64,000 bases of DNA from Ziziphus jujuba (taxonomy: Eukaryota > Streptophyta > Magnoliopsida > Rosales > Rhamnaceae): the NCBI RefSeq assembly GCF_031755915.1, contig NC_083379.1:20904001-20968000 (forward strand), in the 5' to 3' direction. Within the stretch, counting starts at the first letter, position 1. Each line of letters begins with the position of its first letter. The notes beneath the pieces are model-generated. The model had not been told where the DNA came from, did no database searches, and was given only the letters and a program-made list of their open reading frames with translations. Of this stretch, positions 32,839-57,533 are shown one piece after another. Made by a program: the position numbers and the translations under genes.

Positions 32839-33985
32839 TGATGTGATTCCGCCCGAGCCTGCTCAACTGATAACCCGCTGGGGTGCTGACTCGACACGGA
32901 TGAATATTAGGCCAATCACAAGAGCTCAAATTAAGAGATTTAAGGACAACCTGGGAGTATTTATACAAGGGGTAATCAATCTCAACAGAGCTTGTCCATA
33001 CTTGAAGATACAAAGCCTATTCTAAGCATCCAAGTGGTGGAAGCCGATACGGACCCGGGTGACGGTTTTGGTACATTTTTGGAGTCCGGGAAGCATGAAA
33101 TGGTTTCAATGCTTTATGGGTTCAATACATATGCCTAAGAGGTCATAGAATCAATTTAAAGCAGCCTCAAATGCAATCAAAAAGGGCTTGTACGGACAGC
33201 TTCAACAATTTGGCCGAATTTGCTGTATTGCTTCCTGGCTTTACTGTATTTTACTGTATTAGCCTTTTCTTATTTTTTTCAAGCATGGGCAACGTGTGGT
33301 ACTTCATATTCAGCTTATTTGGCATCCTACAAAGCATCTAGAAGCTGATTTGGAGCTCAAAGAGGTCAAAGATTGGTCAAAGTCAAATTAATCAAAAAAG
33401 CTAGTATTATAGTTTCCTAATTTTATTCTACTTCTTGTTTTAGGAAACTACCATTACTTTTTAGTTTTTATTTATTTATTTTCTGGACAAATAAGTTTAG
33501 GAAAGTTATTATTTTATTATTTTCATTGTAAATTAATTAATTCCTAATTCAGAATAAATGAATTAATTAATCAAATTTAGTTTAGGAAACTTAGTTTAGA
33601 ACATATTAGAATTCGGTCAAGTTTCCTAATTCCTATAGGAGTCCGGTTTTCAATAATTTTTTAAGGGTTTATTTTGTTTCTTTCAAGCCTATTTAAAGGC
33701 TTATTTTTCAATAATAAAAAAACTTTGATTTGATTAAGAAAATACTTGTGAGATTAATTATCTCTTTGTTCTTTGAGAACACCTAAAACACCATTAGAGA
33801 ATTGGTTGTTTTAGCTTGACTTATCAATAGGTTTTCCATCCCCTATTGTGGCGTCTACATTATACCAAGGTTTCTAACCACAGGTTGGTTAGGGGTTGAG
33901 GTCAATTCCATTAGAACTTGAACTTAATTAAGATCCGGGCTAATATAATACGGGTTTAGGAGCAGGTCGTCCTAGGTTCGTATCA
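32839..33985 (+). repeat. 5' LTR of element C
   Basis: Starts TGATGTGATTCC and ends CGTATCA. TATTTAAAG at 33690-33698 is the best TATA candidate. The first 186 bp encode the last residues of the polyprotein when present as a 3' LTR. Confidence 0.95.
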
Positions 33986-35146
33986 TTTGGTATCAGAGCT
34001 AAATTTTGTTCAGGTTTGATCTATCTTTATTTGGTTGATTTGTTTTTGTGTTATTCTGCAATTTTAGCATTAGGTTAAGGTTGCATCCATCCCATACACG
34101 TTCTGCATCTTTAAAAAAAAAAAAAAAAAAAATTCATTCCTAGTTGAATTAGGTTTCCTAGTTTTATCGTATTTTTGTTTCCTAATTTGTTGGTTGTCTA
34201 TTATCATTGTTCTTGATAATTTTGGTTTTTGTTGATTTTCCTTTGCTGTTTTAGTCTTAAATATTTGTATTCATATATTAAAAAAAAAAAAAAAAAGAGT
34301 TTGCGGCAACATTAAAAAAAAAAAAAAAAAAAAAAACTGCACATTTGTGTTTATTTGGAGGTCACGGGTTTGGTGTTTGTTTTGGAGTTGGAATTGCAAT
34401 TTTGGTAATTATTCTTGCTACTACAGTTGTTTATGTTCTGTGAGTGAAAAAAAAAAAAAAAAAGAAGAGGTAAAGCCGAATAAAAAAAAAAACAAAAGAA
34501 AAATATTTCAGTTTGTTGGAGTTTGATTTGTTTGCTGGAAATTTGTTGGAGCTGCTGGTTTTTTTATTATTTATTCAATATTTGAGTTGCTGGAGAATTA
34601 TTTTTGCTGCTGGATATTTGGATTTTGGGTGCTTAAATTATTTGGATTAAAATTAGTTAAAGGAATTGATACAAAACTTAAATTACAAAGAATAACAACC
34701 AACAACTTTTCTATATTTTGTTCTCTTTGATTCTTGTTCATATTTGAATTTCTTTTTCTGGAATTTTATTCTTGAACTCATAATCTACTACCATCCGGTG
34801 CAGTTTTCAAAAATTCCAACGTTTTCCCATTATTTTGTGTTTTCTTGTCTAGAAAGCCGAAAAATTAGGATTTGTTGGATTCTTTCGGTATTGCCTACTT
34901 TTTGCTACTGTTTTGTTGATAAGTTTAATTAAAACATACTAGTGATCTAATTGCTGTTTTGTGGATGTTTTAATTAGAACTTTGAGATAATTCATTGAGT
35001 GGAAAAAGGCAAGAGTGTGTGAGCTTAAAAGAGGGTAAAAGCCGAAACTAGTGTGCAAACACGAGTGTCGAGACCTTGTTTGAGTGAAACACGTGAGGGA
35101 GTGAATATTGTGAGGATTTATTTTATTTTTGCAGTATTTTACTAAC
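33986..35146 (+). other. Leader of element C: primer site and five encoded poly-A runs
   Basis: TGGTATCAGAGC at 33988-33999 is a perfect initiator tRNA-Met primer site. The leader then holds A runs of 20, 17, 23, 17 and 11 at 34113, 34280, 34314, 34447 and 34482. Similar runs occur in the leaders of A, D and E. No upstream gene is evident; the short open stretch at 34744-34932 has no family match. Confidence 0.85.
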
Positions 35147-38100
35147 ATGGCAGATTCTAGAATAAGAAGAGGGGATCCACCCTTGAGGATCAATGAGGAA
35201 GAGTCCGTAGCATTCCATGGCGATGATCGAGCTACCGGGAGTGGAGACCAAGTGGACATGAGAGCTGTTTTGGAGTCAATACAGAGGGTTAGTGCTCAAG
35301 TTGAGCATGTGAATCAAAGAATGGGAAGACTAGAAGCCTCACAAGGAATGCCAAGTACAAGAAATAGGCAAGAATTCCATGGAGGACGAGGCCGACGACG
35401 AGGAGGTCGCGAGAGACCAAGAGAGGAATTTGATGAGGAGTCATTCGGTGGAGACTTTGAGGAAGGTATGGACGAAACTTTTACTGTCCAAGATAGAGCT
35501 GGCCATGGAAGATATAGGAGGGAAGAAACAGATGACAATCTTAGCAATATCAAGATCAACATCCCACCATTCATGGGAAAAAGTGACCCCGAAGCATATT
35601 TGGAGTGGGAAGAAAAAATGGAGATGATATTTGACCACCATAATTATTCAGAGGCTAAGAAGGTGAAATTGGCAGCAATGGAGTTTGGCCATTATGCACT
35701 CCAATGGTGGACCAATGAGCAAAACACCCGAAGGAGAGTTGGTGATGACTTGATTACTACATGGCGACAAATGAAAGGAGCCATGCGGAAGCGATTCGTA
35801 CCATCACACTATCATAGGTTGCTGCATCAAAGACTTCAATCTTTATCTCAAGGAACTAGGTCGGTGGAGGATTATTACAAAGAGATGGAGATGCTCATGA
35901 TGAGGTTAAACATGAATGAGGATAGAGAAGCAACCATGGAAAGATTTCTTGGTGGTTTGAATCGTGAGATAGCCAACCAACTAGATTTGCAACAATACTT
36001 GAAGTTGGAGGAGATGTTGCATGTTGCCATTAAGCTTGAGCACCAATTCAAGAGGAGGGGTGTAAGATCATGGTTTGGAGGTGTTTCCAACAATGGAAGG
36101 TCCAATTCAAGTGGCTGGAGGAACAATCCCATCTATGAAAGCAAGCTAAAGCCGAAAGTCAAAGAAGAAAGTTCAAACTGGCCAAGGAAGGAGACTAGAA
36201 CCAAATCTGTCCAAGCACCAAAGAATGAGGTAAAATTAGATCCTAAACCTTCTAGAACTCATGATGTTGTGTGTTTTAAGTGCCAGGGAGGAGGACACAT
36301 TGATAGCCAATGCCCGAATAGAAGAATCATGGTGTTAAAGGGCAATGACGAGCTAGAATCGAAAAGTGAAGAAAGTGAGGATGAAGCCAAGCAAGAGGAG
36401 GAGGACTTGGAGGATGAACCCGAAACCTTGCAAGCATCCAATGCTGAATTAAACTTGCTTTCTAGGAGAGTACTTGCTGTATACAAAGATGAGGATGAAA
36501 TTCAAAGAGAGAACATCTTCCACACCCGATGTGAAATTCAAGGTAAGATTTTTAGTATGATTATTGATAGTGGAAGTTGTACAAATGTAATTAGTAACAT
36601 TGTAGTTGATAAATTAGGCTTAATAACTATTAAACATCCAGAACCTTATAGATTACAATGGCTTAATGATGGTGGTGAAATAAAAGTGAATAAACAAGCC
36701 AAAGTAAAATTTAATATAGGTAGATATGAGGATGTAGTTTTATGTGATATTGTACCCATGATTGCTGGACATATACTATTAGGTAGACCATGGCAATTTG
36801 ATAAAGATGCTACTCATTTTGGTCGAGAAAATAGTATTGTTTTCATGTTTAAAGGGAAGAAGGTCAAGCTGGAACCATTATCTCCTAAAGAGGTTTACAA
36901 AGACCAATTACAAATGCAACAAAGGAGAGAAGCCGAAAAGCTTAAGGAAAAAGCAAGTATGGCACCAACGGCTTCACTATCCTTTCAAGAAGGTAAGAAT
37001 GAGGTTGCTGATCAAGGTAAGGTTTCTAAGACTCATATTAAGTGGAAAGATCAAGGAAAAACTGAAAGAGAGGGGAAAGAAAGTGGCAAACCCAAGAGCT
37101 TGGAGAAGGAAGGGAAATCCGAAGGTTTTCGCCAATCCGAGAGAGAAAAAGAAAAAGAAAGAAAAGAAAGGTCAAGCAGCAACTTTTATTTGAGTTTAGG
37201 GGATATTAATATGGTTATTGAGTGTAAGAAACCTTTGCTGGTCATGATTTATAAAGAAAATTATTTTAATGATCAAACTAACTTTGAAGAACTTGAATTG
37301 CCAAGTTCAATGATTTCTCTTTTGAAGGAATTTGGAGATGTCTTCCCAAATGAAATTCCAAGTGGACTACCATCCAATCAAGAGGGAAAAGGTGAGCTTG
37401 CTGTCCAAGGTAAGTATACTCAGGTTGTGTGGAAATATTTTACTAAAACCAAAAGTGAGAAATTTGGTGCAAAAGCCGAGAGTGAGGAAAGTGATATGGC
37501 CGTGAGTGGGAAAGGAAAAAGAAGACAAGAATGGAAAAATATAAATTTTTATCTTAGTTTTGGTGATGTTAATAAAGTAATTATAAATAAGAAATCATTG
37601 CTGACCATGAATTTGAAATATACTTATTTAAAGATGTCTTTATTGCATAGAACTTTATCTGCATTGTTGAGAGCTTTACTTAGTGGCAATTTGAAAATTT
37701 GGAAAATATTGTTTTCTAACCTTAAAAAGTGTAATTTTTACCATAATGAGCATGTATTTCTAGATTTTGTTGTAATAGTGTTTGACCCAGGAGAATTGGT
37801 TTGGTTGCACTTACGAAATGAAGGGTTTCCTAAACAAAGAAAGTCAAAGCTCATGCTGCCTGTGGATGGACTTTTTCAAGTTTTTGAGCCGAATAACAAG
37901 AATGCCTACAAGCTTGATTTACCGGGTGAGTATAACATGAGTGCTACATTTAATGTTGCTGATTTAACTCCTTTTGCTGCAGGTGATAATCTTGATTTGA
38001 GGACAAATCCTTTTCAAGAGGAGGGGAATGATGTGATTCCGCCCGAGCCTGCTCAACCGATAACCCGCTGGGGTGCTGACTCGACACGGATGAATATTAG

Positions 38101-38215
38101 GCCAATCACAAGAGCTCAAATTAAGAGATTTAAGGACAACCTGGGAGTATTTATACAAGGGGTAATCAATCTCAACAGAGCTTGTCCATACTTGAAGATA
38201 CAAAGCCTATTCTAA
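35147..38215 (+). CDS. Gag-protease polyprotein with scrambled pol relic, intact ORF
   Basis: One uninterrupted ORF of 1,022 codons from the MADSRIRRGDPP start, chosen because all family members start there; an in-frame ATG at 35129 adds six. Order: R/G-rich spacer; capsid (FMGKSDPEAYLEWEEKMEMIF, FGHYALQWW, RFLGGLNREIANQ); zinc knuckle CFKC-x4-H-x4-C near 36272; aspartic protease IIDSGSCTNVISN near 36560 with DSG intact; GRPWQFDKD; charged linker present twice (36985-37262 and 37377-37632). Then an integrase-core piece (RTLSALLRALLSGNLKIW, 37648-37702), an RT piece (FSNLKKCNFYHNEHVFLDFVV, 37711-37775) and the integrase C-terminus (DPGELVWLHLRNEGFPKQR to SATFNVADLTPFA). The last 62 residues lie in the 3' LTR and include RPITRAQIKRF, like the CRM-clade CR motif. 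RT, RNase H and integrase catalysis are absent. Confidence 0.93.
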   Translation: MADSRIRRGDPPLRINEEESVAFHGDDRATGSGDQVDMRAVLESIQRVSAQVEHVNQRMGRLEASQGMPSTRNRQEFHGGRGRRRGGRERPREEFDEESFGGDFEEGMDETFTVQDRAGHGRYRREETDDNLSNIKINIPPFMGKSDPEAYLEWEEKMEMIFDHHNYSEAKKVKLAAMEFGHYALQWWTNEQNTRRRVGDDLITTWRQMKGAMRKRFVPSHYHRLLHQRLQSLSQGTRSVEDYYKEMEMLMMRLNMNEDREATMERFLGGLNREIANQLDLQQYLKLEEMLHVAIKLEHQFKRRGVRSWFGGVSNNGRSNSSGWRNNPIYESKLKPKVKEESSNWPRKETRTKSVQAPKNEVKLDPKPSRTHDVVCFKCQGGGHIDSQCPNRRIMVLKGNDELESKSEESEDEAKQEEEDLEDEPETLQASNAELNLLSRRVLAVYKDEDEIQRENIFHTRCEIQGKIFSMIIDSGSCTNVISNIVVDKLGLITIKHPEPYRLQWLNDGGEIKVNKQAKVKFNIGRYEDVVLCDIVPMIAGHILLGRPWQFDKDATHFGRENSIVFMFKGKKVKLEPLSPKEVYKDQLQMQQRREAEKLKEKASMAPTASLSFQEGKNEVADQGKVSKTHIKWKDQGKTEREGKESGKPKSLEKEGKSEGFRQSEREKEKERKERSSSNFYLSLGDINMVIECKKPLLVMIYKENYFNDQTNFEELELPSSMISLLKEFGDVFPNEIPSGLPSNQEGKGELAVQGKYTQVVWKYFTKTKSEKFGAKAESEESDMAVSGKGKRRQEWKNINFYLSFGDVNKVIINKKSLLTMNLKYTYLKMSLLHRTLSALLRALLSGNLKIWKILFSNLKKCNFYHNEHVFLDFVVIVFDPGELVWLHLRNEGFPKQRKSKLMLPVDGLFQVFEPNNKNAYKLDLPGEYNMSATFNVADLTPFAAGDNLDLRTNPFQEEGNDVIPPEPAQPITRWGADSTRMNIRPITRAQIKRFKDNLGVFIQGVINLNRACPYLKIQSLF
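38016..38028 (+). other. Polypurine tract of element C
   Basis: AAGAGGAGGGGAA directly before the 3' LTR, embedded in the coding frame (QEEGN). Confidence 0.9.
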
Positions 38216-39174
38216 GCATCCAAGTGGTGGAAGCCGATACGGACCCGGGTGACGGTTTTGGTACATTTTTGGAGTCCGGGAAGCATGAAATGGTTCCAAT
38301 GCTTTATGGGTTCAATACATATGCCTAAGAGGTCATAGAATCAATTTAAAGCAGCCTCAAATGCAATCAAAAAGGGCTTGTATGGACAGCTTCAACAATT
38401 TGGCCGAATTTGCTGTATTGCTTGCTGGCTTTACTGTATTTTACTGTATTAGCCTTTTCTTATTTTTTCAAGCATGGGCAACGTGTGGTACTTCATATTC
38501 AGCTTATTTGGCATCCTACAAAGCATCTAGAAGCTGATTTGGAGCTCAAAGAGGTCAAAGATTGGTCAAAGTCAAATTAGTCAAAAAAGCTAGTATTATA
38601 GTTTCCTAATTTTATTCTACTTCTTGTTTTAGGAAACTACCATTACTTTTTAGTTTTTATTTATTTATTTTCTGGACAAATAAGTTTAGGAAAGTTATTA
38701 TTTTATTATTTTCATTGTAAATTAATTAATTCCTAATTCAGAATAAAGGAATTAATTAATCAAATTTAGTTTAGGAAACTTAGTTTAGAACATATTAGAA
38801 TTCGGTCAAGTTTCCTAATTCCTATAGGAGTCCGGTTTTCAATAATTTTTTAAGGGTTTATTTTGTTTCTTTCAAGCCTATTTAAAGGCTTATTTTTCAA
38901 TAATAAAAAAACTTTGATTTGATTAAGAAAATACTTGTGAGATTAATTATCTCTTTGTTCTTTGAGAACACCTAAAACACCATTAGAGAATTGGTTGTTT
39001 TAGCTTGACTTATCAATAGGTTTTCCATCCCCTATTGTGGCGTCTACATTATACCAAGGTTTCTAACCACAGGTTGGTTAGGGGTTGAGGTCAATTCCAT
39101 TAGAACTTGAACTTAATTAAGATCCGGGCTAATATAATACGGGTTTAGGAGCAGGTCGTCCTAGGTTCGTATCA
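38029..39174 (+). repeat. 3' LTR of element C
   Basis: Almost identical to 32839-33985. It contains the end of the polyprotein ORF (stop at 38213-38215), so LTR sequence is also coding sequence. Confidence 0.95.
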
Positions 39175-39179
39175 CTTTC

Positions 39180-41566: not shown

Positions 41567-42702
41567 TGATACGAACCTAGGACGACCTGCTCCTAAACCC
41601 GTATTATATTAGCCCAGATCTTTAATTAAGTTCAAGTTCTAATGGAATGAACCTCAACCCTAACCAACCTGTGGTTAGAAACCTTGGTATAATGTAGACG
41701 CCACAATAGGGGATGGAAAACCTATTGATAAGTCAAGCTAAAACAACTAATTCTCTAATGGTGTCTTAGGTGTTCTCAAAGAACAAAGAGATAATTAATC
41801 TCACAAGTATTTTCTCAATCAAATCAAAGTTGTTTTCTTATTGATAACTAAGCCTTTAAATAGGCTACAAAGCCATGAAATAAAACCCTAGAACATAAAG
41901 AAAACCAGCCACCACACATAAAGAAACCTAGTTGGCTGAAACTATACTTCCTTTCCTAATCTAAGTTTGATTAATTAATTCCTTTATATTAAATTAGGAA
42001 TTAATTAATTTACAATGGAAAAAATAAAATAAAAACCTTCCTAAAGTTATTTTTCCAGAAAATAAATAAATAAAAGCCAAAAAGTAATGGTAGTTTCCTA
42101 AAACAAAAAGTAAAAACAAATTAGGAAACTAAAAATGCTAGCCTTTTTGATCAAGTTGACTTTGATCAATCTTTGACCTCTTTGAGCTTCAAATCAGCTT
42201 CTAGATGATTTGTAGGATGCCAAATAAGCTGAATATGAAGTCCCACACGCTGCCCATGCTTGGAAAAATAAGAAAAGGCTAATACAGTAAAATACAGTAA
42301 AGTCAGCAAGCAATACAGCAAATTCGGCCAAATTCTTGATGTTGTCCGTACAAGCCCTTTTTGATTGCATTTGAGGCTGATTTAACTTGATTCCATGACC
42401 TCTTAGGCATATGTATTGAACCCATAAAGCATTGGAACCATTTCATACTTCCCGGACTCCAAAAATGTACCAAAACCGTCACCCGGGTTCATATCAGCTT
42501 CCACCACTTGAATGCTTCGAATAGGCTTTGTATCTTCAAGTATGGACAAGCTCTGTTGAGATTGATTACCCTCTGTATAAATACTCCCAGGTTGCCCTTA
42601 AATCTCTTAATTTGAGCTCTTGTGATTGGCCTAGTCTTCATCCGTATCGAGTCAGCACCCCAGCGGGTTATCGGTGGAGCGGGCTTGGGCGGAATCACAT
42701 CA
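41567..42702 (-). repeat. 3' LTR of element D
   Basis: In sense TGATGTGATTCC to CGTATCA. The polypurine tract (plus-strand TTCCCCTCCTCTT) lies next to it at 42703-42715. The CR-like coding segment RPITRAQIKRFKGNLGVFIQ is open at 42560-42700. Confidence 0.93.
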
Positions 42703-42766
42703 TTCCCCTCCTCTTGAAAAGGATTTGTCCTCAAATCAAGATCATCACCTGCAGCAAAAGGAGTTA

Positions 42767-44154
42767 AGAGGTTTTGGGTTGAAGATGGCCTTCTCTACAC
42801 AAAGGGGCATCGCATCTATGTACCAAGGTGGGGCAACATAAGGAAAAATTTGATCAAAGAATGCCATGACACCAAATGGGCTGGCCACCCGGGGCAAAAG
42901 CGTACGAGAGCTTTGTTGGAGACGAACTATTATTGGCCACAAATGCGGGATGACATCGAGATGTATGTGAAGACCTGCCTTGTTTGTCAACAAGACAAGG
43001 TGGAGCAACGACAACCCGCAGGTTTATTGGAGCCACTACCAACTCCGGAGAGACCATGGGAGAGCATCTCCATGGACTTCATCATTGGCTTACCCAAGTC
43101 CGAGGGATGTAGCACTATAATCGTAGTGGTTGATCGATTTTCTAAGTATGCTACATTCATTGCCGCGACAAAGGAGTGTCCAGCTGAGGAGACGGCACGG
43201 CTATTTTTCAAGCACGTGGTGAAGTATTGGGGACTCCCAAGATCAATTATAAGTGATCGAGACTCAAGGTTCACCGGAAGGTTTTGGACGGAGTTATTTA
43301 AGCTCATGGGCTCGGAGTTGCATTTCTCTACAAGCTTTCATCCACAAACCGATGGGCAAACCGAGCGAGCTAATGCGCTATTAGAGCTATATCTACGGCA
43401 CTTTGTGAGTGCCAATCAACATGATTGGGCAAAGCTGCTAGATGTTGCCCAATTCTCCTACAACTTGCAAAGGAGCGAGTCCACCAATCGAAGTCCATTC
43501 GAGTTAGCCACGGGGCAACAACCACTCACTCCACAAACACTTGTTACCAAGTATGGAGGAAGGAGTCCTGCCGCATTCAAGATTGCCAAAGGTTGGCATG
43601 AACAAGTGGACTTAGCAAGGTCGTACCTTCATAAGGCCACCAAGAAAATGAAGAAGTGGGCGGACACCAAAAGAAGGCACGTGGAGTATCAAGTGGGAGA
43701 CTTGGTGTTCATCAAAATCCTTTCATCCCAACACAAGTCTACCCGAGGACTACACAAAGGCCTTGTTCGCCGATACGAGGGACCGTTTCCAATCGTCAAG
43801 AAGGTGGGCAAGGTATCTTATAAGGTGGAGTTACCTCCTACACTCAAACTTCACCCGGTCTTCCATGTAAGTTGCTTAAAGCCATACTACAAGGATGAAG
43901 AAGACCAAACAAGAGGGGAGTCCAAGCGAGCACCAATAGGGGTCTACAACACTTATGACAAGGATGTGGAGAGCATCTTAGCTGATCGAGTAGTTCGTGG
44001 AAGGGATAACCATCCGAGTCATGAGTACTTGGTGAAATGGAAGGGACTTCCCGATAGCGAAGCAAGTTGGGAACCTGCTATCGCGCTTTGGCAATTTGAA
44101 GATCATATCAAGAGGTTCCATGAAGCAAGCTCGACGAGGACGTCGACGGCATAG
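42767..44154 (+). CDS. Chromodomain integrase of a Galadriel-like chromovirus (5'-truncated pol)
   Basis: Open frame from the truncation point at 42767 (first ATG 42850, 434 codons) to TAG at 44152-44154. It starts in the RNase H-integrase spacer (RFWVEDGLLYTKGHRIYVP), then the HHCC zinc finger (HDTKWAGHPG...CLVCQQDK), DDE core (SMDFIIGLP, IISDRDSRF, TDGQTERANALLELYL), C-terminal GPY/F-type domain (GDLVFIKI, RRYEGPFPIVKKVG) and a chromodomain (VVRGRDNHPSHEYLVKWKG, SEASWEP) near 43970-44130. Words such as DVAQFSYNLQRS and ELATGQQPLTP fit the Galadriel lineage. All catalytic residues are present and there is no stop, in contrast to its decayed neighbours. Gag, protease, RT and the 5' LTR are missing, so it is a fragment. 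Confidence 0.93.
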
Positions 44155-44678
44155 GTGGGGGAGAATGTCACGGTTGAAGCATTTCATCAAACACTTGGTG
44201 AGCATTCTCTCCATTTTGGGCCTTATAATCCACTTTGGGCCTATTTTGGGCCTTACAATGGGCCAAGCACCTAGAGTAGTGTAGAATTCTCTAGAACCTT
44301 GTGGAGAACTCTAGGTCAAGCCATGTACATATCCATTCTAGATGCTTCTTTAGATATTTTATGTAAAGGAGGTGGGAAGGATCTAGACACCCATTCTCCA
44401 CCGTAGGATTAAAGCAATTATAGCCGTAGGATTAGACTTTGTGTGCCTATAAATAGGTGGAGGCCTCATTTGGCTAAACCATCCAAGAATCCAAGCATCC
44501 AAGGATTCAAGAATCCAAGCTACTCTTGTAAAGCTCTCTTTTAAGCAATATACTTTCATTCTCCCAAACTCTCTTTGTGCTCTAGCTTTCTTTGCTTAAC
44601 TCTCTCTTTTTGTGAGCAAAAGGCTTACTTAGTTGCAACAAAGGGTCAGAATAGCAACTAAGGCCGCACGGCTTGACA
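44155..44678 (+). repeat. 3' LTR of the Galadriel-like fragment with polypurine tract
   Basis: Polypurine tract AGGTGGGGGAGAA at 44154-44166, LTR start TGTCACGGTTG at 44167, LTR end CTTGACA at 44678 (512 bp). A TATA box TATAAATA lies at 44448-44455. After it the CRM-like sequence resumes as TTAAATGCAGC. The left junction at 42767 has lost about nine bases of D relative to C, so the 5' part was removed by a deletion after insertion. Confidence 0.8.
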
Positions 44679-47509
44679 TTAAATGCAGCACTCATGTTAT
44701 ACTCACCCGGTAAATCAAGCTTGTAGGCATTCTTGTTATTCGGCTCCAAAACTTGAAAAAGTCCATCCATAGGCAGCATGAGCTTTGACTTTCTTTGTTT
44801 AGGAAACCTTTCCTTTCATAAGTGCAACCAAGCCAATTCTCCTGGGTCAAACACTATTACAACAAAATCTAGAAATACATGCTCATTATGGTAAAAATTA
44901 CACTTTTTAAAATTACCAAACAATATTTCCCAAATTTTCAAATTGCCACTAAGTAAAGCTCTCAACAATGCAGATAAAGTTCTATGCAATAAAGACATCT
45001 TTAAATAAGTATCTTTAAAATTCATGGTCAGCAAAGATTTCTTATTCATAATTACTTTATTAACATCACCAAAGCTAAGATAAAAATTTATATTCTTCCT
45101 TTCTTGTCTTCCTTTTCCTTTCTCACTCAATGCCATTTCACCTTCCTCACTCTCGGCTTTTGCACCAAATTTTTCACTCTTGGTTTTATTAAAATCTTTC
45201 CACACAACCTGAGTATTAGAATACTTACCTTGGATAGCAAGCTCACCTTTTCCCTCTTGATTGGATGGTAGTCCACTTGGAATTTCATTTGGGAAGACAT
45301 CTCCAAATTCCTTCAAAAGAGAAATCATTGAACTTGGCAATTCAAGTTCTTCAAAGTTAGTTTGATCATTAAAATAATTTTCTTTATAAATCATGACCAG
45401 TAAAGGTTTCTTACACTCAATAACCTTATTAATATCCCTTAAACTCAAATAAAAGTTGCTACTTGACCTTTCTTTTCTTTCTTTTTCTTTTTCCCCCTTG
45501 GATTGGCGCAAACCTTCGGATTTCCCTTCCTTCTCCAAGCTTTAGGGTTTGCCACTCTCTTTCCCCTCTCTTTTGATTTTTCCTTGATCTTTCCACTCAA
45601 TATGAGTCTTAGAAACCTTACCTTGATCAACAACCTCATTCTTACCTTCTTGAAAGGATGGTGAAGCCGTTGGTGCCATACTTGCTTTTTCCTTAAGCTT
45701 TTCGGCTTCTCTCCTTTGTTGCATTTGTAATTGGTCTTTGTAAACCTCTTTAGGAGATAATGGTTCCAGCTTGACCTTCTTCCCTTTAAACCTAAAAACA
45801 ATACTATTTTCTCGACCAAAATGAGCAGCATCTTTATCAAATTGCCATGGTCTACCTAATAGTATATGTCCAGCAATCATGGGTACAATATCACATAAAA
45901 CTACATCCTCATATCTACCTATATTAAATTTTACTTTGGCTTGTTTATTCACTTTTATTTCACCACTATCATTAAGCCATTGTAATCTATAAGGTTCTGG
46001 ATGTTTAATAGTTATTAAGCCTAATATATCAACTACAATGTTACTAATTACATTTGTACAACTTCCACTATCAATAATCATACTACAAATCTTACCTTGA
46101 ATTTGACATCGGGTGTGGAAGATGTTCTCTCTTTGAATTTCATCCTCATCTTTGTATGCAGCAAGTACTCTCCTAGAAAGCAAGTTTAATTCAGCATTGG
46201 ATGCTTGCAAGGTTTCGGGTTCATCCTCCAAGTCCTCCTCCTCTTGCTTGGCTTCATCCTCACTTTCTTCACTTTTCGATTCTAGCTCGTCATTGCCCTT
46301 TAACACCATGATTCTTCTATTCGGGCATTGGCTAGCGACGTGTCCTCCTCCCTGGCACTTAAAACACACAATATCATGAGTTCTAGAAGGTTTAGGATCT
46401 AATTTTACCTCATTCCTTGGTGCTTGGACAGATTCGGTTCTAGTCTCCTTCCTTGGCCAATGTGAACTTTCTTCTTTGACTTTCGGCTTTGGCTTGCTTT
46501 CATAGATGGGATTGTTCCTCCAGCCACTAGAATTGGACCTTCCACTGTTGGAAACACCTCCAAACCATGATCTTACACCCCTCCTCTTGAATTGATGCTC
46601 TAATTTAATAGCCACATGCAACATCTCCTCCAATTCCACATATTGTTGCAATTCTAGTTGATTGGCTATTTCACGATTCAAACCACCAAGAAACCTTTCC
46701 ATGGTTGCTTCCCTATCTTCATTCAAGTTCAATCTCATCATAAGCATCTCCATCTCCTTGTAATAATCCTCCACGGATCCATGTCCTTGAGATAAAGATT
46801 GAAGTCTTTAATGCAGCAACCTATGATAGTGTGATGGTACGAATCGCTTCCGCATGGCTCCTTTCATTTGTCGCCATGTAGTAATCAAGTCATCACCAAC
46901 TCTCCTTCGGGTGTTTTGCTCATTGGTCCACCATTGGAGTGCATAATGGCCAAATCTCATTGCTGCCAATTTCACCTTCTTAGCCTCCGAATAATTATGG
47001 CGGTCAAATATCATCTCCATTTTTTCTTCCCACTCCAAATATGCTTCGGGGTCACTTTTTCCCATGAATGGTGGGATGTTGATCTTGATATTGCTAAGAT
47101 TGTCATCTGTTTCTTCCCTCCTATATCTTCCATGGCCAGCTCTATCTTGGACAGCAAAAGTTTTGTTCATACCTTCCTCAAAGTCTCCACCGAATGGCTC
47201 CTCATTAAATTCCTCTCTTGGTCTCTCGTGACCTCCTCGTCCTCGGCCTCGTCCTCTATGGAATTCTTGCCTATTTCTTGTGTTTGGAATTCCTTGGGAA
47301 ACTTCCAACCTTCCCATCCTTTGATTCACATGCTCAATTTGAGCACTAACCCACTGTATTGACTCCAAAACAGCTCTCATGTCCACTTGGTCTCCGCTCC
47401 CGGTAGCTCGAGCATCGCCATGGTATGCTACGGACTCCTCCTCATTGATCCTCAAGGGTGGATCTCCTCTTCTTATTCTAGAATCTGCCATGTTAGTAAA
47501 ATACTGCAA
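44679..47509 (-). pseudogene. Gag-protease-relic polyprotein of element D
   Basis: Minus-strand counterpart of the C ORF, starting MADSRIRRGDPP at about 47491 (upstream ATG 47509). Same order: capsid, zinc knuckle CFKC-x4-H-x4-C, protease with DSG intact, doubled linker, integrase-core piece (RTLSALLRALLSGNLKIW), RT piece (FGNFKKCNFYHNEHVFLDFVV), integrase C-terminus. Three in-frame stops break it: TAA for the Gln in LLHQRLQ at about 46809, TAA near 45542, and TGA for an Arg after LAWLHL at 44816. No frameshift separates the pieces. The Galadriel fragment cuts the last part. Confidence 0.93.
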
Positions 47510-48573: not shown

Positions 48574-49710
48574 TGATACGAACCTAGGACGACCTGCTCC
48601 TAAACCCGTATTATATTAGCCCGGATCTTTAATTAAGTTCAAGTTCTAATGGAATGGACCTCAACCCCTAACCAACCTGTGGTTAGAAACCTTGGTATAA
48701 TGTAGACGCCACAATAGGGGATGGAAAACCTATTGATAAGTCAAGCTAAAACAACCAATTCTCTAATGGTGTCTTAGGTGTTCTCAAAGAACAAAGAGAT
48801 AATTAATCTCACAAGTATTTTCTCAATCAAATCAAAGTTGTTTTCTTATTGATAACTAAGCCTTTAAATAGGCTACAAAGCCATGAAATAAAACCCTAGA
48901 ACATAAAGAAAACCAGCCACCACACATAAAGAAACCTAGTTGGCTGAAACTATACTTCCTTTCCTAATCTAAGTTTGATTAATTAATTCCTTTATATTAA
49001 ATTAGGAATTAATTAATTTACAATGGAAAGAATAAAATAAAAACCTTCCTAAAGTTATTTTTCCAGAAAATAAATAAATAAAAGCCAAAAAGTAATGGTA
49101 GTTTCCTAAAACAAAAAGTAAAAACAAATTAGGAAACTAAAAATGCTAGCCTTTTTGATCAAGTTGACTTTGATCAATCTTTGACCTCTTTGAGCTTCAA
49201 ATCAGCTTCTAGATGATTTGTAGGATGCCAAATAAGCTGAATATGAAGTCCCACACGTTTCCCATGCTTGGAAAAATAAGAAAAGGCTAATATAGTAAAA
49301 TACAGTAAAGCTAGCAAGCAATATAGCAAATTCGGCCAAATTCTTGATGCTGTCCGTACAAGCCCTTTTTGATTGCATTTGAGGCTGCTTTAACTTGATT
49401 CCATGACCTCTTAGGCATATGTATTGAACCCATAAAGCATTGGAACCATTTCATACTTCCCGGACTCCAAATATGTACCAAAACCGTCACCCGGGTTCGT
49501 ATCAGCTTCCACCACTTGAATGCTTCGAATAGGCTTTGTATCTTCAAGTATGGACAAGCTCTGTTAAGATTGATTACCCTCTGTATAAATACTCCCAGGT
49601 TGCCCTTAAATCTCTTAATTTGAGCTCTTGTGATTGGCCTAGTCTTCATCCGTATCGAGTCAGCACCCCAACGGGTTATCGGTGGAGCGGGCTTGGGCGG
49701 AATCACATCA
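48574..49710 (-). repeat. 5' LTR of element D
   Basis: 1,137 bp, in sense TGATGTGATTCC to CGTATCA, close to 41567-42702. The open stretch at 49311-49706 is the CR-like coding segment read through with no start of its own, not a gene. Confidence 0.93.
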
Positions 49711-50619: not shown

Positions 50620-51758
50620 TGATATGAACATAGGTCAACGTGCTACTAAATCCATATTGTACTAGCGCTGATTGAAATTAAGTTTAGATTCTTATGGTCA
50701 CATTGACCCCTAATCAACTTATGATTAAAAACCTTTGTATATGATGAAGATACCACAATAGGTGATGGATGTCCTATTAATAAGTCAAACTAAAACACTC
50801 GATCTCTATTCGATGTTTTAGGTGTTCAAAGAGATTAAAGAGAATTCTTTCTCACAATTAAATTAACATATGAATAATGATCTAATCTCCCATTCCATTG
50901 AAAAATAAGCCCTTAAATAAGCTAAAGTTATAAAATATCAAACCCTAAAATAACTAGGTTAATTTCGGCCAACATAGAAAGAAATTGGAAAGTGGCTTAA
51001 ATTTACAGGTCATTTCCTAAACAATTTTGGGTTAATTAGTTCCTTAATTTTGAAAAATAAATTAATTAATTTACAATAAAATATTAAAATTTCAACCTTC
51101 CTAAATTATTTTTTCAAGCAAATAATTAAATAAAAACCAAAATAAAAGACTATTTCCTAAAACAAAAAGTCAAATTTTAGATTTGGAGAGTAGTTGACTA
51201 GTTTCTCAAATAAGCTGTCTTTGCCTAATCATCATCCAGTTTAAGCTCCAAATCAGACCTAATATGCCATATAGAATTCCAATTAGGATTAGAACTGGTC
51301 AGTACACATTACGAATGATTGGAACGATCAAAGCTTACTTGGATTACAGGATAGCTACTTCATAGCACCAAAATAGTGAAATTTAGCAATATTAAAGGCT
51401 TGTGCGCAAATGATAATTTTGATTCCTTTGATTCTGCGTTGTCATGATTCTATGGCCTCTTGGTGAGCTCAAATACATTCATAGGCTAACAAACCAGTCC
51501 CCTACTGCTCGGAGTCCATAGATGTACCAAAACAGCATTTAAGTCCATTTCTACCTTCATAACTTGGATGTACAGTAAAGGCTTTGAATCTTTGGGTATT
51601 ATCATGCCTTCTTGAGATTTAATAACACCTTGAATAAAAGTAACTAGATTTTTCTTAAATCTCTTCGCTTGTGCCCTAGTAAGTGGCCCTGTCTTCTGTT
51701 GCATGGATCAGCACCACCGGATGTAGTTGATTGTATGTATACAGGCGGATTCTCATCA
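50620..51758 (-). repeat. 3' LTR of element E
   Basis: 1,139 bp, in sense TGATGAGAATCC to CATATCA. The polypurine tract (plus-strand TTCCCCTCCTTTT) follows. GPLTRAQAKRFKKNLVTFIQGVI is open at about 51600-51700 and matches the CR-like motif of the family. Confidence 0.9.
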
Positions 51759-52015
51759 TTCCCCTCCTTTTAAAAAGGATTTTCCCTCAAATAAAAATCA
51801 TCACCTGTAGCAAATGGAGGTAAGTCAGCAACATTAAAGGTAGCACTCACCTGGTAAGTCAAACTTGTAGGCATTTTTATTAACCCTCTGTAGAACTCGA
51901 AAAGGTTCATCTCCTCGAGGCATGAGCTTTGACTTTCATTGTTCCAAAAACCTCTCCATTCTTAAATGCAACCAAACCCAATATTTGAGTTCAAACACTA
52001 GCTTTATTCGGCCTT
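51759..52015 (-). pseudogene. Integrase C-terminus of element E (left piece)
   Basis: In sense: LGLVAFKNGEVF-like, then PRGDEPFRVLQRVNKNAYKFDL, SATFNVADLPPFAT and the polypurine tract. Continues at 57534 across F; the join lies in the integrase core-to-C-terminus spacer. Short indels break it. Confidence 0.75.
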
Positions 52016-53123
52016 TGATGAGAATCGACTCGAGATAGTACAACCAAAAATCTGCTGGGGTACCGACTCGATACGGATGAAGATCGGACCAATCACTAGA
52101 GCTCAAGCCAAGAGGTTTAGGGAAAACCTTGCTGCATTTATCAAGGGAGTAATTCATTCTCAAGAGGGCTTGTCCATACATAAAGATCCAAGACCTGTTT
52201 TGAGCATACAACTGGTGGAAGCCGATACAGGCCCGGGTAGCAGTTTTGGTACATTTAAGGAGTCTGAGCAGCAAGAAATGGTTCCAACTCTTTATAGATT
52301 CAATAAATATCACTAAGAGGTCATGGAAACAAGTTAAGGTAGAAGTAAAACCAACTTGTACGGACAGCTCCAAAATTTGGTCGAAAATTGCTGTATTACT
52401 TGCTGGCTTTACTGTATTTTGCTGAGTTGGCTTTTTCTCTTTCCTCCAAGCAAGGGAAACATGTGGGACTCCATAAAAAGCTTATTTGGCATCTTAAAAA
52501 GCATATTGAAGCTGATTTGGAGCTTAAATTGGTCAAAGATTAGTCAAAGTCAACTTAGTCAGAAAGCTAGTATTTTAGTTTCCTAATTTAATTCTACTTT
52601 TTATTTTAAGAAATCACCATTACTTTTTTACTTTTATTTATTTATTTGCTAGACAAATAAGTTTAGGAAATTTTTCATTGGAAATTAATTAATTCCTAAG
52701 TCAAAATAAAGGAATTAATTAATCCAAATTAGATTAGGGTAGGAGGAGACTTTCGGCCATATTAGGATTCTTCATAGCATGGCCGGTTTTTCCTTTTTGT
52801 TTTAGGGTTTTATTTTGTTTTATCTTAGCCCATAAAAGGGCTTGTTTTGGAAGAAGAACACACCATTAATAATATTCAAAATTTATTTTGTGAGATTGAA
52901 TTTCTCTTTGTTCTTTTGAACACTTAAAACACCATTAGAGAGTGAGTATTTTAGTTTGACTTATCAATAGGACTTCTATCACCTATTGTGGCATCTTCAT
53001 TATATACCAAGGTTTCTAATCACAGGTTTGTTAGGGGTCAAGGTGACCATTAGAACTTGAACATAATTAGATCCAGACTAATATAATACGGGTTTAGGAG
53101 CAGGTCGTCCTACGTTCGCATCA
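52016..53123 (+). repeat. 5' LTR of element F
   Basis: Starts TGATGAGAATCG and ends CGCATCA. The primer site TGGTATCAGAGCC follows at 53126-53138. GPITRAQAKRFRENLAAFI is open near 52086-52142. Confidence 0.92.
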
Positions 53124-53913
53124 TTTGGTATCAGAGCCGAATTTTGTTTAGGTTTAATCTATCTTTATTTGCTTTATTTGTTTCTTTATGTTAATCTGCA
53201 ATTTTAGCACTAGGTTAAGGTTGCTTCTATCATTATACATGTTCAGCATTTTTAAAAAAAATACAAATAAAAAATTAATTCCTAGTTGAATTACGATTCT
53301 CTAGTTTTATCGTATTTTTGTTTCCTAGTTTGTTGGTTTTTTTTCATAATTGTTCTTGTTAATTTTGGTTTTTTTTGCTGCTGGATATTTGAATTTTGGG
53401 TGCTAAAAATATTGGATTAAAATTAGTTAAAGGATTTGATACAAAACTTGAATTACAAGAACAACAACCAACACTATTCCTTAATTTTGTTCGAATTGAT
53501 TCTTATTCAAGTATGAAATTCTTTTTCTAAATTTTTATTCTTGAGCCTTTAATTTCTTACCATCTAGTCCAGTTCTTATTGATTCCAAACTTTCTTGTTA
53601 ATTTGCCTTATTTTGCCTAGAAAAGCTGAAAACTAGGTTTCGCCAATTCATTCGGTATTGCTTGTTCTTGCTAATGTTTATTGATAAGTTTAATTAAAAT
53701 ATACTCATGATCTAATTTGTGTTTTGTGGGTGTTTTAATTAGAACTTTGAGATAAGTCATTGAGAGGAAAAAGACAAGAGGGTGTGAGCTCAAAAGAGGG
53801 TTAAAAGCCGAAGTTAGTGTGCAAACATGAGTGTCAAGTTCTTATTTGAGTGAAACGCGCGAGGGAGTGAATTTGGTGAGGCCTTATTTTATTTTTATAT
53901 TATTCATACTAAC
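53124..53913 (+). other. Leader of element F
   Basis: Primer site at 53126, then non-coding sequence related to the leader of C but shorter, with the long A runs mostly lost (one interrupted run near 53254). Ends at the Gag start ATG at 53914. Confidence 0.75.
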
Positions 53914-56415
53914 ATGGTAGATTCAAGGGTGAGAAAAAGAGATCCACATTTAAGAATTAATGAAGAAGAGTCTGCAGGATTCCATGGTGGTTCCTGAGCT
54001 ACGGGGAGTGGTGAGCGAATGGACATGAGGGCTATATTGGATCAATTGCAGCGGATGAATGCTCGATTTGATAATATAGATCAAAGGATGGACAGGATAG
54101 AAACATCAAAAGGAGGGCAGAATATAAGGCTAGATGCTCATGGAGGTCAAGGTCGAGGTCGAAGAGGCCGAGGGTGACCAAGAGAGGAATTCAGGGGAAG
54201 TAACTTTGGAGATGACTTTGATGAGGGGTTTGATGAAATTTTTGAACCTCAAGAAAGGCCAATCCATGGAAGATCAGCAAGGAATGAAGATGATGATCTA
54301 GGGAATATCAAGGTCAACATTCCACGTTTCATGGGAAAAAATGATCCAGAGGCATATTTGGAATGGGAGGAGAGAATGGAGATGATTTTTTATTGTCATA
54401 ATTATTCGGAGGCCAAGAAGGTGAAGTTGGCAGCAATGGAGTTTGGTCATTATGCACTCCAATGGTGGACCAATGAATAAAACACCCGAAGGAGAGTTGA
54501 TAATGACTTGATCACTACATGGCGACAAATGAAAGGAGCCATGAGAAAGCGGTTCGTACCATCACACTATCATAGGTTGCTGCATCAAAGACTTCAATCT
54601 TTATGTTAAGGAACTAGGTCCGTGAAGGATTATTACAAGGAGATGGAGATGCTTATGATGAGGTTAAGCATAAATGAAGATAGGGAGCGACCATGGCAAG
54701 ATTCCTTGGTGGTTTGAATCATGAGATAGCCAATCAACTAGAATTGCAACAATATATGAAATTGGAGGAGATGTTGTATGTGGCTATTAAGTTGGAGCAT
54801 CAATTCAAGAGGAGGGGTATAGGCTCACGGTTTGGGGGTGTTTCCAATAGCGGAATATCAATTCCAAGTGGCTGAAGAAACAATCCTACCTATGAAAGCA
54901 AGCTAAAGCCGAAGGTGGGAGACGAAAGCACCAATCGGCCAAAAAGGAAGCCTAAAGTCAAATCTATCCAAGCACCAAGGAAAGAAGGTAAATCTAATCC
55001 TAAACCTTCTAGAACTCATGATGTTGTGCACTTTAAGTGCTAGGGAATAGGACACATTGCTAGTCAATGCCCGAATAAGAGGACCATCGTGCTGAAAGGT
55101 AATGGGAAACTAGAATCTGAAGGTGAAGAAAGTGATGCTGAAACCGAAATTAATGGTGAAGAAGTTAGAGATGATGGGCATAATGAATCCGAAACTCTCA
55201 AGGCATCTAGGGTCGATTTGAGTTTAGTAGCAAGAAGATTTCTAAGAATCTACACAGATGAAGACCAAGTTCAAAGAGAGAATATCTTCCACACCCGATG
55301 TGAAATCCAAGGTAAGATTTGTAGTAAGATTATTGATAGTGGAAGTTGTAACAATGTAATTAGTAACATTGTGATTGATAAATTAGGCTTAACAACTATT
55401 AAACATCTAGAACCATGATAGTGCTGAGATGAAAGTGAATAAACAACCAAAGTAAAATTTAGCATAGATAAATATATGGATGTCGTTTTGTGTGATGTTG
55501 TGCCTATGCATGCCAGACATATTCTATTTGGTAGACTATGGCAATTTGATGAAGATGCTATTCAATATGGTCGGGAGAATTGTATTATTTTTAGATTTAA
55601 AGGTAAAAAAGGCAAGCTAGAGCCATTAACTTTTAAGGAAGTGTATAGAGATCAATTACAAATACAACAAAGGAGGGAGGCCGAAAAACTCAAGGAGAAG
55701 GCTAGTATGGTACCTACGGCTTCACCATCCATCCAAGAAGGTAAGTCCTAGCTTGCTGTCCAAGGTAAGCATTCTAAAACACAAATTGAATGGAGAAATC
55801 ATGAGAAAGACAAAAGTGGAGTGAAAAAAATAGAGAAAGCTAAGAGGCTCAGTGAGAAACTTGAGAGAGAGGAAGAATGTGAGGTGGCCAAGAGAGAGAA
55901 AGGAAAATAAAGAAAAGAGAGGAAAAGTAAAAAAATTTATTTTAGTATTGGGGATGTTAACAAGGCTATCTTGAGTAAGAAACCATTGCTAGTCATGAAT
56001 TATAAAAATGCTTATTTAAAGATGCTTTTGTTGTTTAGAACTTTATCTGTATTGTTGAGAGCTTTACTTTGTAGCAATTTGAAAATTAGGAAGAGATTAT
56101 TTGCTAACTTTAAAAGGTGTAACTTTTGCCATAACGAGTATGTATTTCTAGATTTTTTTGTAATAGTGTCTAACCCAGGATATTTGGTTTGGTTGCACTT
56201 ACAAAAGGAGAGGTTTCCAAAACAAATAAAGTTAAAGCTTATGCCACGCGTGGATGGACATTTTCAAGTTTCAGAGCGAATTAACGAGAGTACCTACAAA
56301 CTTGATTTAATAAGTGAGTATAGTGTTAGTGCTACATTTAATGTTGTTGATTTGACTTCTTTTTCTGCAGGTGATGACTTTGATTTGAGGGAAAATCCCT
56401 TCAAGAGGAGGGGAA
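53914..56415 (+). pseudogene. Gag-protease-relic polyprotein of element F
   Basis: Starts with an ATG aligned to the family MADS start (here MVDSRVRKRDP). Many stops (for example TGA near 53996, TAA near 54478 and 54607) and small deletions. Recognisable: FMGKNDPEAYLEWEERMEM, FGHYALQWW, FLGGLNHEIANQLEL, protease KIIDSGSCNNVISN at about 55325-55375, KGKLEPLTFKEVYRDQL. 55971-56438 is open and holds one linker end (KKPLLVMNYKNAYLK), the integrase piece (RTLSVLLRALLCSNLKI), the RT piece (RLFANFKRCNFCHNEYVFLDFFV) and the integrase C-terminus (FPKQIKLKLM to SATFNVVDLTSFS). A one-base shift precedes the LTR; in the correct frame the LTR continues with a CR-like EPITKAQGKRF. Confidence 0.9.
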
Positions 56416-57533
56416 TGATGAGAATCGACCCGAGCTAGTACAACCAACAACCCGCTGGGGTACCAACCCGATACGGATGAAGATCGAACCGATCACTAAA
56501 GCTCAAGGGAAGAGGTTTAGGGAAAAACTTGCTGCCTTTATCCAGGGTGTAATTCATTCTTGATAGAGCTTGTCCATACCCAAAGATCCAAGACCTGCTT
56601 TGAGTATACAAGTGGTGGAAGCCAATACGGGCCCATGTAGCGGTTTTGTTACATTTAAGGAGTCCAGCTAGAAAGAAATGGTTCCAACTCTTTATGGATT
56701 CAATAAATATCCCTAAGAGGTCATGGAAACAAGTCAAGGCAGAAGTAAAACCAACTTGTACGGATAGCTTCAAAATTTGGCCGAAAATTGCTGTATTGCT
56801 TGCTAGCTTTACTGTATTTTGCTGAGTTGGCTTTTTCTCTTTCCTCCAAGCAAGGGCAACGTGTGGGACTCCATAATAAGCTTATTTGGAATCCTACAAA
56901 GCATATTGAAGCTCAGTTGGAGCTCAAATTGATCAAAGATTAGTCAAAGTCAACTTAGTCAAAAAGCTAATATTTTAGTCTCCTAATTTGATTCCACTTT
57001 TTGTTTTAGGAAATTACCATTACTTTTTGAATTTTATTTATTTATTTGCTGGAAACATAAGTTTAGGAAAGTTATTATTTTATTATTTTCATTGGAAATT
57101 AATTAATTTCTAAGTCAAAATAAAGGAATTAATTAATCCAAATTAGATTAGGAAAGGAGGAGACTTTCGGCCATATTAGGATTCTTCATAGCATGGCCGG
57201 TTTTTCCTTTTTGTTTTAAGGTTTTTTTTTTTCTCTTAGTCTATAAAGGGGCTTGTTTTTTTGGAAGAACACACCATTAATAAAATTCAAAATTTATTTT
57301 ATGAGATTAAATTTCTCTTTGTTCTTTTAAACACCTAAAACACCATTAGAGAGTGGGTGTTTTAGTTTGACTTATCAAAAGGACTTCCATCATCTATTGT
57401 GGCGTTTTCATTATATACCAAGTTTTCTAATCACAGGCTGGTTAGGGGTCAAGGCGCCCATTAGAACTTGAACATAATTAGATATGGGCTAATATAATAC
57501 GGATTTAGGAGCAGGTCTCCTAGGTTCGTATCA
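56416..57533 (+). repeat. 3' LTR of element F
   Basis: Preceded by polypurine tract AAGAGGAGGGGAA. Starts TGATGAGAATCG and ends CGTATCA. The target duplication GCCTT follows. Confidence 0.92.

What the first reader, a model, noticed from the sequence alone, without database searches (positions are those of the whole stretch)
32839..57533. Same scrambled joints in three elements (C, D, F): a replicating non-autonomous Gag-protease family
C (32839-39174), D (41567-49710) and F (52016-57533) each have their own LTR pair and perfect target duplication (CTTTC, CTATT, GCCTT), and all carry the same integrase-RT-integrase relic after protease. The scrambled form has therefore been copied and inserted several times. 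Its LTRs fall in two subfamilies and range from about 99.5% identical (C) to clearly diverged (F), so it has persisted for a long time and was active recently. A parasite that makes its own Gag and protease but borrows RT and integrase fits the sequence and resembles the reported non-autonomous elements that keep only gag.
Basis: partly seen in the sequence, partly recalled or inferred. Interest (0 to 1): 0.92.

Follow-up and report, generated by a model that had tools for sequence, protein, structure and literature searches.

The report
Thousand-copy parasitic retrotransposon family of jujube
A genome identified as jujube holds about a thousand copies of one scrambled joint that replaces the copying and inserting genes of a jumping element, so the element is inferred to spread with enzymes borrowed from intact relatives, with which its shell-protein genes have likely been exchanged repeatedly.

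Summary
C, D and F are separate LTR-element insertions with different 5-bp duplications that share three joints (protease linker to integrase, integrase to RT, RT to integrase tail), aligned without a gap. C and D carry a fourth joint (J0) that F lacks. The host is identified as Ziziphus jujuba by an exact contig-length match. Genome-wide, a 41-base word over one joint occurs 1,041 times (reversed control 0); the matching word of unscrambled relatives occurs 572 times. Of 20 sampled copies, 20 carry J0, 17 have parsed LTR pairs, and 13 have perfect, all-different duplications. Gag and protease are constrained (dN/dS 0.26 and 0.14; 0.31 and 0.45 in copies without helper-type tracts); the scrambled tail is not (0.92). 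New here: heads and tails have separate histories. In 7 of 16 copies part or all of Gag-protease is of the autonomous type, so parasite and helper RNAs have likely shared particles. Functionally this is a known kind (non-autonomous CRM elements of hop, wheat Quinta, coffee TR-GAG). The shared scar, the copy number and the visible head exchange make it an unusually clear case. Trans-mobilisation and particle sharing are inferred, not observed.

The parts
32839..33985 (+). element C, 5' LTR (TSD CTTTC at 32834-32838 and 39175-39179)
33986..33999 (+). C primer binding site TTTGGTATCAGAGC
35147..38215 (+). C single open frame, 1022 aa: Gag, protease, linker1, RT start, linker2, IN-RT-IN relic, IN C-terminal SH3 domain, end inside the 3' LTR
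   Evidence: no internal stop; Pfam Retrotrans_gag 76.5 bits, SH3_Tf2-1 51.1 bits, no RT/RNase H/integrase-core match
36446..36958 (+). C protease region (DSG motif near 36566)
   Evidence: (Asp_protease_2 19.8 bits, under the curated cut-off of 24.3)
36959..37381 (+). C linker1 and RT start up to joint J0
37382..37646 (+). C second linker copy (linker2), after J0
37647..37701 (+). C integrase fragment (between J1 and J2)
   Evidence: 78% to G 57838-57784
37704..37775 (+). C RT fragment (between J2 and J3)
   Evidence: 85% to G 59246-59175
37776..38028 (+). C integrase C-terminal region with polypurine tract 38016-38028
38029..39174 (+). C 3' LTR; its first 187 bases encode the ORF end with a CR-like motif ITRAQIKRFK
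48574..49710 (-). element D, 5' LTR (TSD CTATT)
44676..47509 (-). D Gag-protease-relic, same frame as C with three in-frame stops (one each in Gag, linker1 and integrase tail); J2 near 44931/44930, J3 at 44857/44856
42768..44675 (+). nested insert in D: 5'-truncated chromovirus (integrase, chromodomain, polypurine tract, 3' LTR); not part of the family
41567..42702 (-). D 3' LTR
52016..53123 (+). element F, 5' LTR (TSD GCCTT inside the integrase gene of G)
53900..56415 (+). F Gag-protease-linker-relic, frame broken; joints J1-J3 as in C and D, no J0; RT fragment about 56086-56163, IN tail from 56164
56416..57533 (+). F 3' LTR
50620..64000 (-). element G, full-pol relative (decayed), interrupted by F; LTRs 50620-51755 and 62917 to the window end, K 0.173
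14178..20680 (-). element B, full-pol relative (decayed), 3' LTR truncated

Best explanation
C, D and F are separate insertions of one non-autonomous Ty3/gypsy (CRM-like) family whose RT and integrase genes are reduced to one shared scrambled fragment, and which is therefore inferred to be copied and inserted by enzymes supplied by relatives in the same genome that keep intact RT genes. Shown: the shared joints, the separate insertions, about a thousand genomic copies of one joint, relatives with intact RT-RNase H in open frames of up to 1,735 codons, constraint on Gag and protease, no detectable constraint on the tail, and mosaic heads. Inferred: transcripts are packed into Gag particles, the helper's RT and integrase act on shared primer-binding, polypurine and LTR-end signals, and two different RNAs packed together let the polymerase switch templates. 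Template switching would explain the short microhomology at J2 and the longer imperfect match at J0, and why Gag-protease alleles of the autonomous type now sit in front of the old scrambled tail. The tail itself is predicted to be a passenger.
For: Same joints in C, D and F without gaps, present in 2 of 326 listed relatives (P0208, P0209). 1,041 joint words against 572 unscrambled words, reversed controls 0. Of 20 sampled loci 20 have J0 within 4 of 41 bases and 17 have parsed LTR pairs; 13 perfect duplications are all different. LTR divergence in the 14 copies kept is 0.0018-0.027. dN/dS over 16 copies: Gag 0.26 (0.20-0.32), protease 0.14 (0.09-0.21), tail 0.92 (0.59-1.57); in the 9 copies without autonomous-type tracts Gag 0.31 (0.24-0.40), protease 0.45 (0.26-0.85), tail 0.95 (0.61-1.74); tail without the sampled word 0.90. 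Segment distance matrices of Gag or protease do not correlate with LTR or linker2 (r -0.09 to 0.04), while 5' against 3' LTR gives 0.98. Autonomous-type tracts of two or more 100-base windows in 7 of 16 copies, and no relic-type window in 8 of 8 autonomous loci. Relic copies L022 and L023 have Gag 0.007-0.014 from the nearest autonomous Gag, against 0.16-0.24 for 13 of 16 and 0.077 for L020. 75 of 75 scored RT-RNase H matches (11,551 candidates) are 92-94% identical to P0224, 52 without a stop.
Against: No transcript, particle, extrachromosomal DNA or new insertion was seen. The sample was drawn from exact matches to the J3 word on C1-C5, which favours young copies and lowers tail diversity (tail dS 0.046, 0.050 without the word; linker2 0.083). 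Once the 7 copies with autonomous-type tracts are left out, protease and tail have the same synonymous divergence (both 0.048), and only Gag stays higher (0.131). LTRs (K 0.07) are also more diverse than the tail. Autonomous donors with C-type heads may exist (P0313), so constraint cannot be assigned wholly to the non-autonomous phase. Between C and D alone protease shows 1 synonymous and 7 nonsynonymous changes. For C-F, the transversion-only fourfold-site control for different head and LTR ages was not significant (p 0.25), and the capsid tree does not reject C+D+F (p 0.09). Some segment pairs do correlate (relic with 5' leader 0.62, Gag with linker1 0.55, relic with integrase tail 0.44, Gag with protease 0.37). 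The comparison set that defines relic-type windows was chosen after the distances were seen, and the 8 autonomous loci are the top matches to one query.
Confidence: 0.88

Rival explanations
1. Semi-mutualist rather than parasite: the scarred elements would feed Gag and protease to a common pool used by the helper, as proposed for wheat Quinta.
For: Gag and protease constrained, also in the 9 copies without autonomous-type tracts; longest frame of 950 codons or more in C and in 2 of 14 sampled copies; precedent PMC11302176 section 5.
Against: Nothing here measures helper benefit; constraint would look the same if Gag served only the element itself or arrived from autonomous donors.
Confidence: 0.3
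2. The scar arose by repair of a chromosome break with copied filler, and head exchange is gene conversion between DNA copies; particles play no part in the mosaics.
For: J2-J3 is a short piece of RT copied into a gap in integrase, which filler repair also produces (general knowledge); nested and tandem copies exist.
Against: Tract ends differ among dispersed copies with different duplications, and the 5' and 3' LTR distance matrices agree (r 0.98) while interior segments do not, as expected if the exchange precedes insertion. PMC5668417 (passages) reports only 5 of 32 new Onsen insertions with a single parent.
Confidence: 0.2
3. Segmental duplication or tandem spread of one dead locus, no transposition of the scarred form.
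For: Seven copies on C7 spaced 10,203 bases are such a case.
Against: No match between flanks of C, D and F, 13 perfect and different duplications among 17 parsed pairs, listed copies on several contigs.
Confidence: 0.02
4. The in-frame integrase C-terminal and CR-like tail is kept as a chromatin-targeting arm on Gag-protease.
For: Frame stays open through the tail in C, P0208 and P0209; SH3_Tf2-1 matches at 51-58 bits; several proteins of beech and other plants also join Gag to this tail (but the searches select for that).
Against: Tail dN/dS 0.92 (0.59-1.57), integrase-tail codons alone 3.65 on very few synonymous changes; the motif reads TRAQIK, not TRARAK.
Confidence: 0.05

Closest known systems
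noaCRM of hop, Humulus lupulus (PMC12371157, section 19 and passages read)
   Same: LTR elements without RT, RNase H and integrase, with Gag and protease implied to remain; outnumber autonomous copies (482 to 189 there; 1,041 to 572 words here); young insertions
   Different: section 19 reports no scrambled RT-integrase scar and no head exchange; hop elements are centromeric, the listed hits here are dispersed, some near contig ends
RLG_Quinta with RLG_Cereba, wheat (PMC11302176, abstract, sections 5 and 9 read)
   Same: Gag-coding non-autonomous partner of a CRM element, same model of borrowed RT and integrase
   Different: Quinta has Gag plus a domain of unknown function, and its Gag barely matches the helper's DNA; here Gag-protease is exchanged with autonomous relatives
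TR-GAG elements (PMC6022998 and PMC8704663, passages; coffee CRM TR-GAGs PMC5818461, passages)
   Same: two LTRs, Gag or Gag plus protease; one Arabidopsis TR-GAG was seen to transpose
   Different: here an integrase C-terminal domain and a scrambled relic remain in frame
Recombinant centromeric retrotransposons of grasses, including largely non-autonomous CR2-Sb-B (PMC4079200, passages)
   Same: recombination between autonomous and non-autonomous variants yields prolific mosaics
   Different: no shared scar marking the non-autonomous line in the passages seen

Membership tests
non-autonomous CRM (noaCRM) as in hop | lacks RT, RNase H and integrase core, keeps Gag and protease | tested here: met
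   Pfam on C ORF; protease match is weak by Pfam but the DSG motif is present
non-autonomous CRM (noaCRM) as in hop | primer binding site and LTR ends shared with autonomous partner | tested here: inconclusive
   near-match to old full-pol G and B; LTRs of young autonomous copies not obtained
CRM clade, group A (Neumann 2011, PMC3059260) | RT phylogeny places it in CRM | not tested
   no labelled CRM reference at hand
CRM clade, group A (Neumann 2011, PMC3059260) | LTR 299-1,225 bp, ends TGATG...T/CATCA, 5-bp TSD | tested here: met
   section 7 of the paper
CRM clade, group A (Neumann 2011, PMC3059260) | polyprotein runs into the 3' LTR | tested here: met
   C ORF ends at 38215, 187 bases inside the 3' LTR
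CRM clade, group A (Neumann 2011, PMC3059260) | CR motif (TRARAR/K) | tested here: inconclusive
   C has TRAQIK at that place; motif definition from PMC11302176 section 9
CRM clade, group A (Neumann 2011, PMC3059260) | concentration at centromeres | tested here: inconclusive
   the 100 exact joint hits listed of 1,041 are dispersed over C1-C5, several within 0.7 Mb of a contig end; no CENH3 data
TR-GAG (definition in Inpactor, PMC6022998) | only a Gag, or Gag plus protease domain | tested here: not met
   SH3_Tf2-1 integrase-tail domain also present in frame
TR-GAG (definition in Inpactor, PMC6022998) | two LTRs, no RT or integrase core | tested here: met

The most novel reading that the evidence does not exclude
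A one-tail, many-heads parasite: a defective tail, scrambled once, has persisted by repeatedly taking over its helper's Gag-protease through copy-choice recombination inside shared particles, so that the parasite stays packaged as the helper's Gag changes. The scar acts as a natural marker that lets parasite and helper recombination be counted genome-wide.
Probability: 0.5. Interest if true: 0.66.

Novelty: new variant of a known kind. Interest (0 to 1): 0.52.

Why it matters
How non-autonomous LTR elements stay compatible with helpers for millions of years is an open question. Here a shared, nearly neutral scar marks the parasite copies, a likely helper is present in many copies, and head exchange is visible in individual copies. 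That makes partner switching, co-packaging and the direction of gene flow countable in one chromosome-scale fruit-tree genome.

Tried and rejected
Segmental duplication: rejected for the sampled copies. Scar as an assembly artefact: rejected, since its word recurs 1,041 times and the joints occur in P0208 and P0209. The D insert as captured cargo of the family: rejected; it is a 5'-truncated chromovirus on the other strand, with 10 target bases missing. Selection on the tail as a targeting arm: not supported. Fifteen proteins of beech, Hibiscus and unnamed sources with Gag or linker plus integrase tail but without full RT were mapped: most show a simple deletion, P0007, P0125 and P0054 more pieces, and none has the joint peptides, so they are parallels, not members. 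The age argument from C-F synonymous rates is weaker than it first looked. In one search the tree over residues 611-749 is unreliable for P0208 and P0209, whose second linker was mapped there; it is not used. Centromere targeting: not supported by the dispersed listed hits. A count of the J0 word and a search with P0313 did not complete.
Full report
What was checked. The three elements are as described. LTR pairs, target duplications, primer site and polypurine tract were read directly. C has LTRs 99.48% identical, D 98.6%, F 90.3%, which is K 0.0053, 0.0143 and 0.1046. At 1.3e-8 substitutions per site and year (the rate quoted for coffee in PMC5818461, passages) this is 0.2, 0.55 and 4.0 million years; the rate is not calibrated for this host. 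F sits inside the integrase gene of the older element G, with GCCTT on both sides. Flanks of C, D and F do not match each other.

Anatomy. In element orientation the order is Gag, protease, a charged linker, then in C and D an RT start and a second linker copy, then 55 bases of integrase, 72 bases of RT, the integrase C-terminal region, polypurine tract and 3' LTR (lengths for C). Joints: J0 (RT start to linker2, C and D only), J1 (linker to integrase), J2 (integrase to RT), J3 (RT to integrase tail). At J2 the two parent sequences in element G share TGTTTGC; at J0, RT start of G and linker of F share 11 of 14 bases. C is one open frame of 1,022 codons that ends inside the 3' LTR. Pfam finds Gag and the SH3-like integrase tail, a weak protease match below its cut-off, and no RT, RNase H or integrase core.

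More copies. Among 326 proteins listed by three database searches (each lists its best 120), the four joints occur in 2: P0208 and P0209. P0209 is named Ziziphus jujuba and lies on a contig of 32,986,920 bases, exactly the length of contig C5 of the window's genome, so the host is identified as jujube. That genome has 393.8 Mb in 14 contigs. A first DNA search scored 40 of 5,175 candidates: the window's own place, 39 more long matches at 95-97%, and one piece of 138 bases. A 41-base word over J3 with up to 3 mismatches occurs 537+504 = 1,041 times, reversed control 0. The word at the same RT position in autonomous copies occurs 281+291 = 572 times, control 0. Both counts depend on how diverged the copies are, a word is not a whole element, and other full-pol subfamilies such as B and G are not counted.

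Sample of copies. From the 100 exact J3 hits listed, all on contigs C1-C5, every fifth was fetched: 20 loci, L009-L028. Drawing exact hits favours young copies. All 20 have J0 within 4 of 41 bases and J1 within 3 of 39; J2 is within 2 in 19 and 7 off in L021. LTR pairs were parsed in 17 of 20; 13 have perfect duplications, all different. L010 (fetched too short), L016 and L026 were not parsed; L011, L013 and L024 were dropped from later counts because of mismatched duplications or odd LTR spans; L028, with one mismatch in its duplication, was kept. In the remaining 14, LTR divergence runs from 0.0018 to 0.027, median 0.012; over all 17 it runs to 0.103, median 0.015.

Selection. With C and D the 14 copies give 16. 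Pairwise counts give dN/dS 0.26 (0.20-0.32) for Gag, 0.14 (0.09-0.21) for protease, 0.71 (0.48-1.11) for linker1 with RT start, and 0.92 (0.59-1.57) for the tail from linker2 to the integrase end. Leaving out the 7 copies with autonomous-type tracts, the other 9 give Gag 0.31 (0.24-0.40), protease 0.45 (0.26-0.85) and tail 0.95 (0.61-1.74); leaving out the codons of the sampled word gives tail 0.90. So Gag, and less strongly protease, look constrained in the scarred line itself, unless its heads came from autonomous elements not sampled here. In C against D alone, Gag is constrained (33 changes in 240 synonymous, 34 in 957 nonsynonymous sites), protease is not shown to be (1 and 7 changes).

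Heads and tails have different histories. Synonymous divergence among the 16 copies is 0.23 in Gag and 0.21 in protease but 0.046 in the tail. Without the 7 mosaic copies it is 0.131, 0.048 and 0.048, so the excess in protease comes from imported alleles. Distance matrices of Gag and protease do not correlate with those of LTR or linker2, while 5' and 3' LTR give r 0.98; some other pairs do correlate (relic with 5' leader 0.62, Gag with linker1 0.55, relic with integrase tail 0.44, Gag with protease 0.37). LTRs are also more diverse (K 0.07) than relic or integrase tail (0.03-0.04). A protease tree rejects C+D+F as one group (p 0.0006), the capsid tree does not (p 0.09). For C-F alone, a transversion-only control was not significant.

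The likely helper. The RT-RNase H protein P0224 matches 75 of 75 scored places (of 11,551 candidates) at 92-94%, 52 of them without a stop, with open frames up to 1,735 aa. Integrase and LTRs of these copies were not examined. Against 8 of these loci (L030-L037), relic copies L022 and L023 carry Gag of the autonomous type (K 0.007-0.014, against 0.16-0.24 for 13 of 16 and 0.077 for L020), and L017, L022 and L023 carry its protease (K 0.012-0.018). In 100-base windows, 7 of 16 scarred copies have autonomous-type tracts of two or more windows: L009, L015, L017, L018 and L020 with different tract ends, L022 and L023 throughout the stretch; L012 has one such window. None of the 8 autonomous loci has a relic-type window. 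The reference set for relic type was picked after seeing the distances, and the autonomous set is the top of one search. P0313 carries a C-like linker in front of intact RT (88% over 58 residues), so autonomous elements with C-type heads may also exist.

Reading. The simplest account is a non-autonomous family that makes, or until recently made, Gag and protease, depends on RT and integrase in trans, and recombines with its helper while the two RNAs are in one particle. The first two steps follow from the anatomy and the constraint; the third is inferred from the mosaics. Recombination of co-packaged RNAs is reported for Arabidopsis Onsen (PMC5668417, passages).

Known relatives. Hop centromeres hold 482 non-autonomous and 189 autonomous CRM copies, the former without RT, RNase H and integrase (PMC12371157, section 19). 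Wheat Quinta and Cereba follow the same model (PMC11302176, sections 5 and 9). Coffee has CRM TR-GAGs (PMC5818461, passages), and an Arabidopsis TR-GAG was seen to transpose (PMC8704663, passages including part of the abstract). Grass centromeric elements form prolific recombinants, some from largely non-autonomous variants (PMC4079200, passages). The jujube centromere paper (PMC12596083, abstract, sections 6 and 9, passages) describes Athila- and CRM-type families; a find for words beginning with 'autonomous' gave 0. Among the papers listed by searches I saw none on this jujube family or on this scar; the lists were capped and only openly licensed papers are held. CRM membership rests on structure (LTR ends, size, 5-bp duplication, frame into the 3' LTR; PMC3059260 sections 6-7); no RT tree with named CRM elements was made, and the CR-like motif is TRAQIK.

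Noticed in passing
window 580-7597: Ty1/copia element with LTRs 98.8% identical (K 0.012) and three long frames (2437-3246, 3364-5397, 5413-6180); duplication not resolved.
   Followed up: partly
window 42768-44675: 5'-truncated chromodomain chromovirus inside D, opposite strand, LTR TGTCACGG...CTTGACA, 10 target bases missing.
   Followed up: partly
window 39259-40447: Diverged direct repeats between C and D, including a 143-bp tandem pair at 39880-40164.
   Followed up: no
G000:C7:12500745-12563469: Seven scarred copies spaced exactly 10,203 bases: a tandem array whose unit holds part of the element in reverse (L029).
   Followed up: partly
window 36050 (+), 54807 (+), 46588 (-): A second copy of the polypurine word AAGAGGAGGGG lies inside gag in C, F and D; whether it acts as an internal plus-strand primer is open.
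   Followed up: no
proteins P0010, P0012, P0105, P0148, P0149, P0144; and P0011, P0158, P0007: Beech and unnamed JGI proteins join the RT start to integrase at one shared point (first six) or at another (last three), two parallel non-autonomous forms; some are gene models that may skip introns.
   Followed up: partly
window 23137-24837: 3' end of a further full-pol relative, minus strand, cut off.
   Followed up: no
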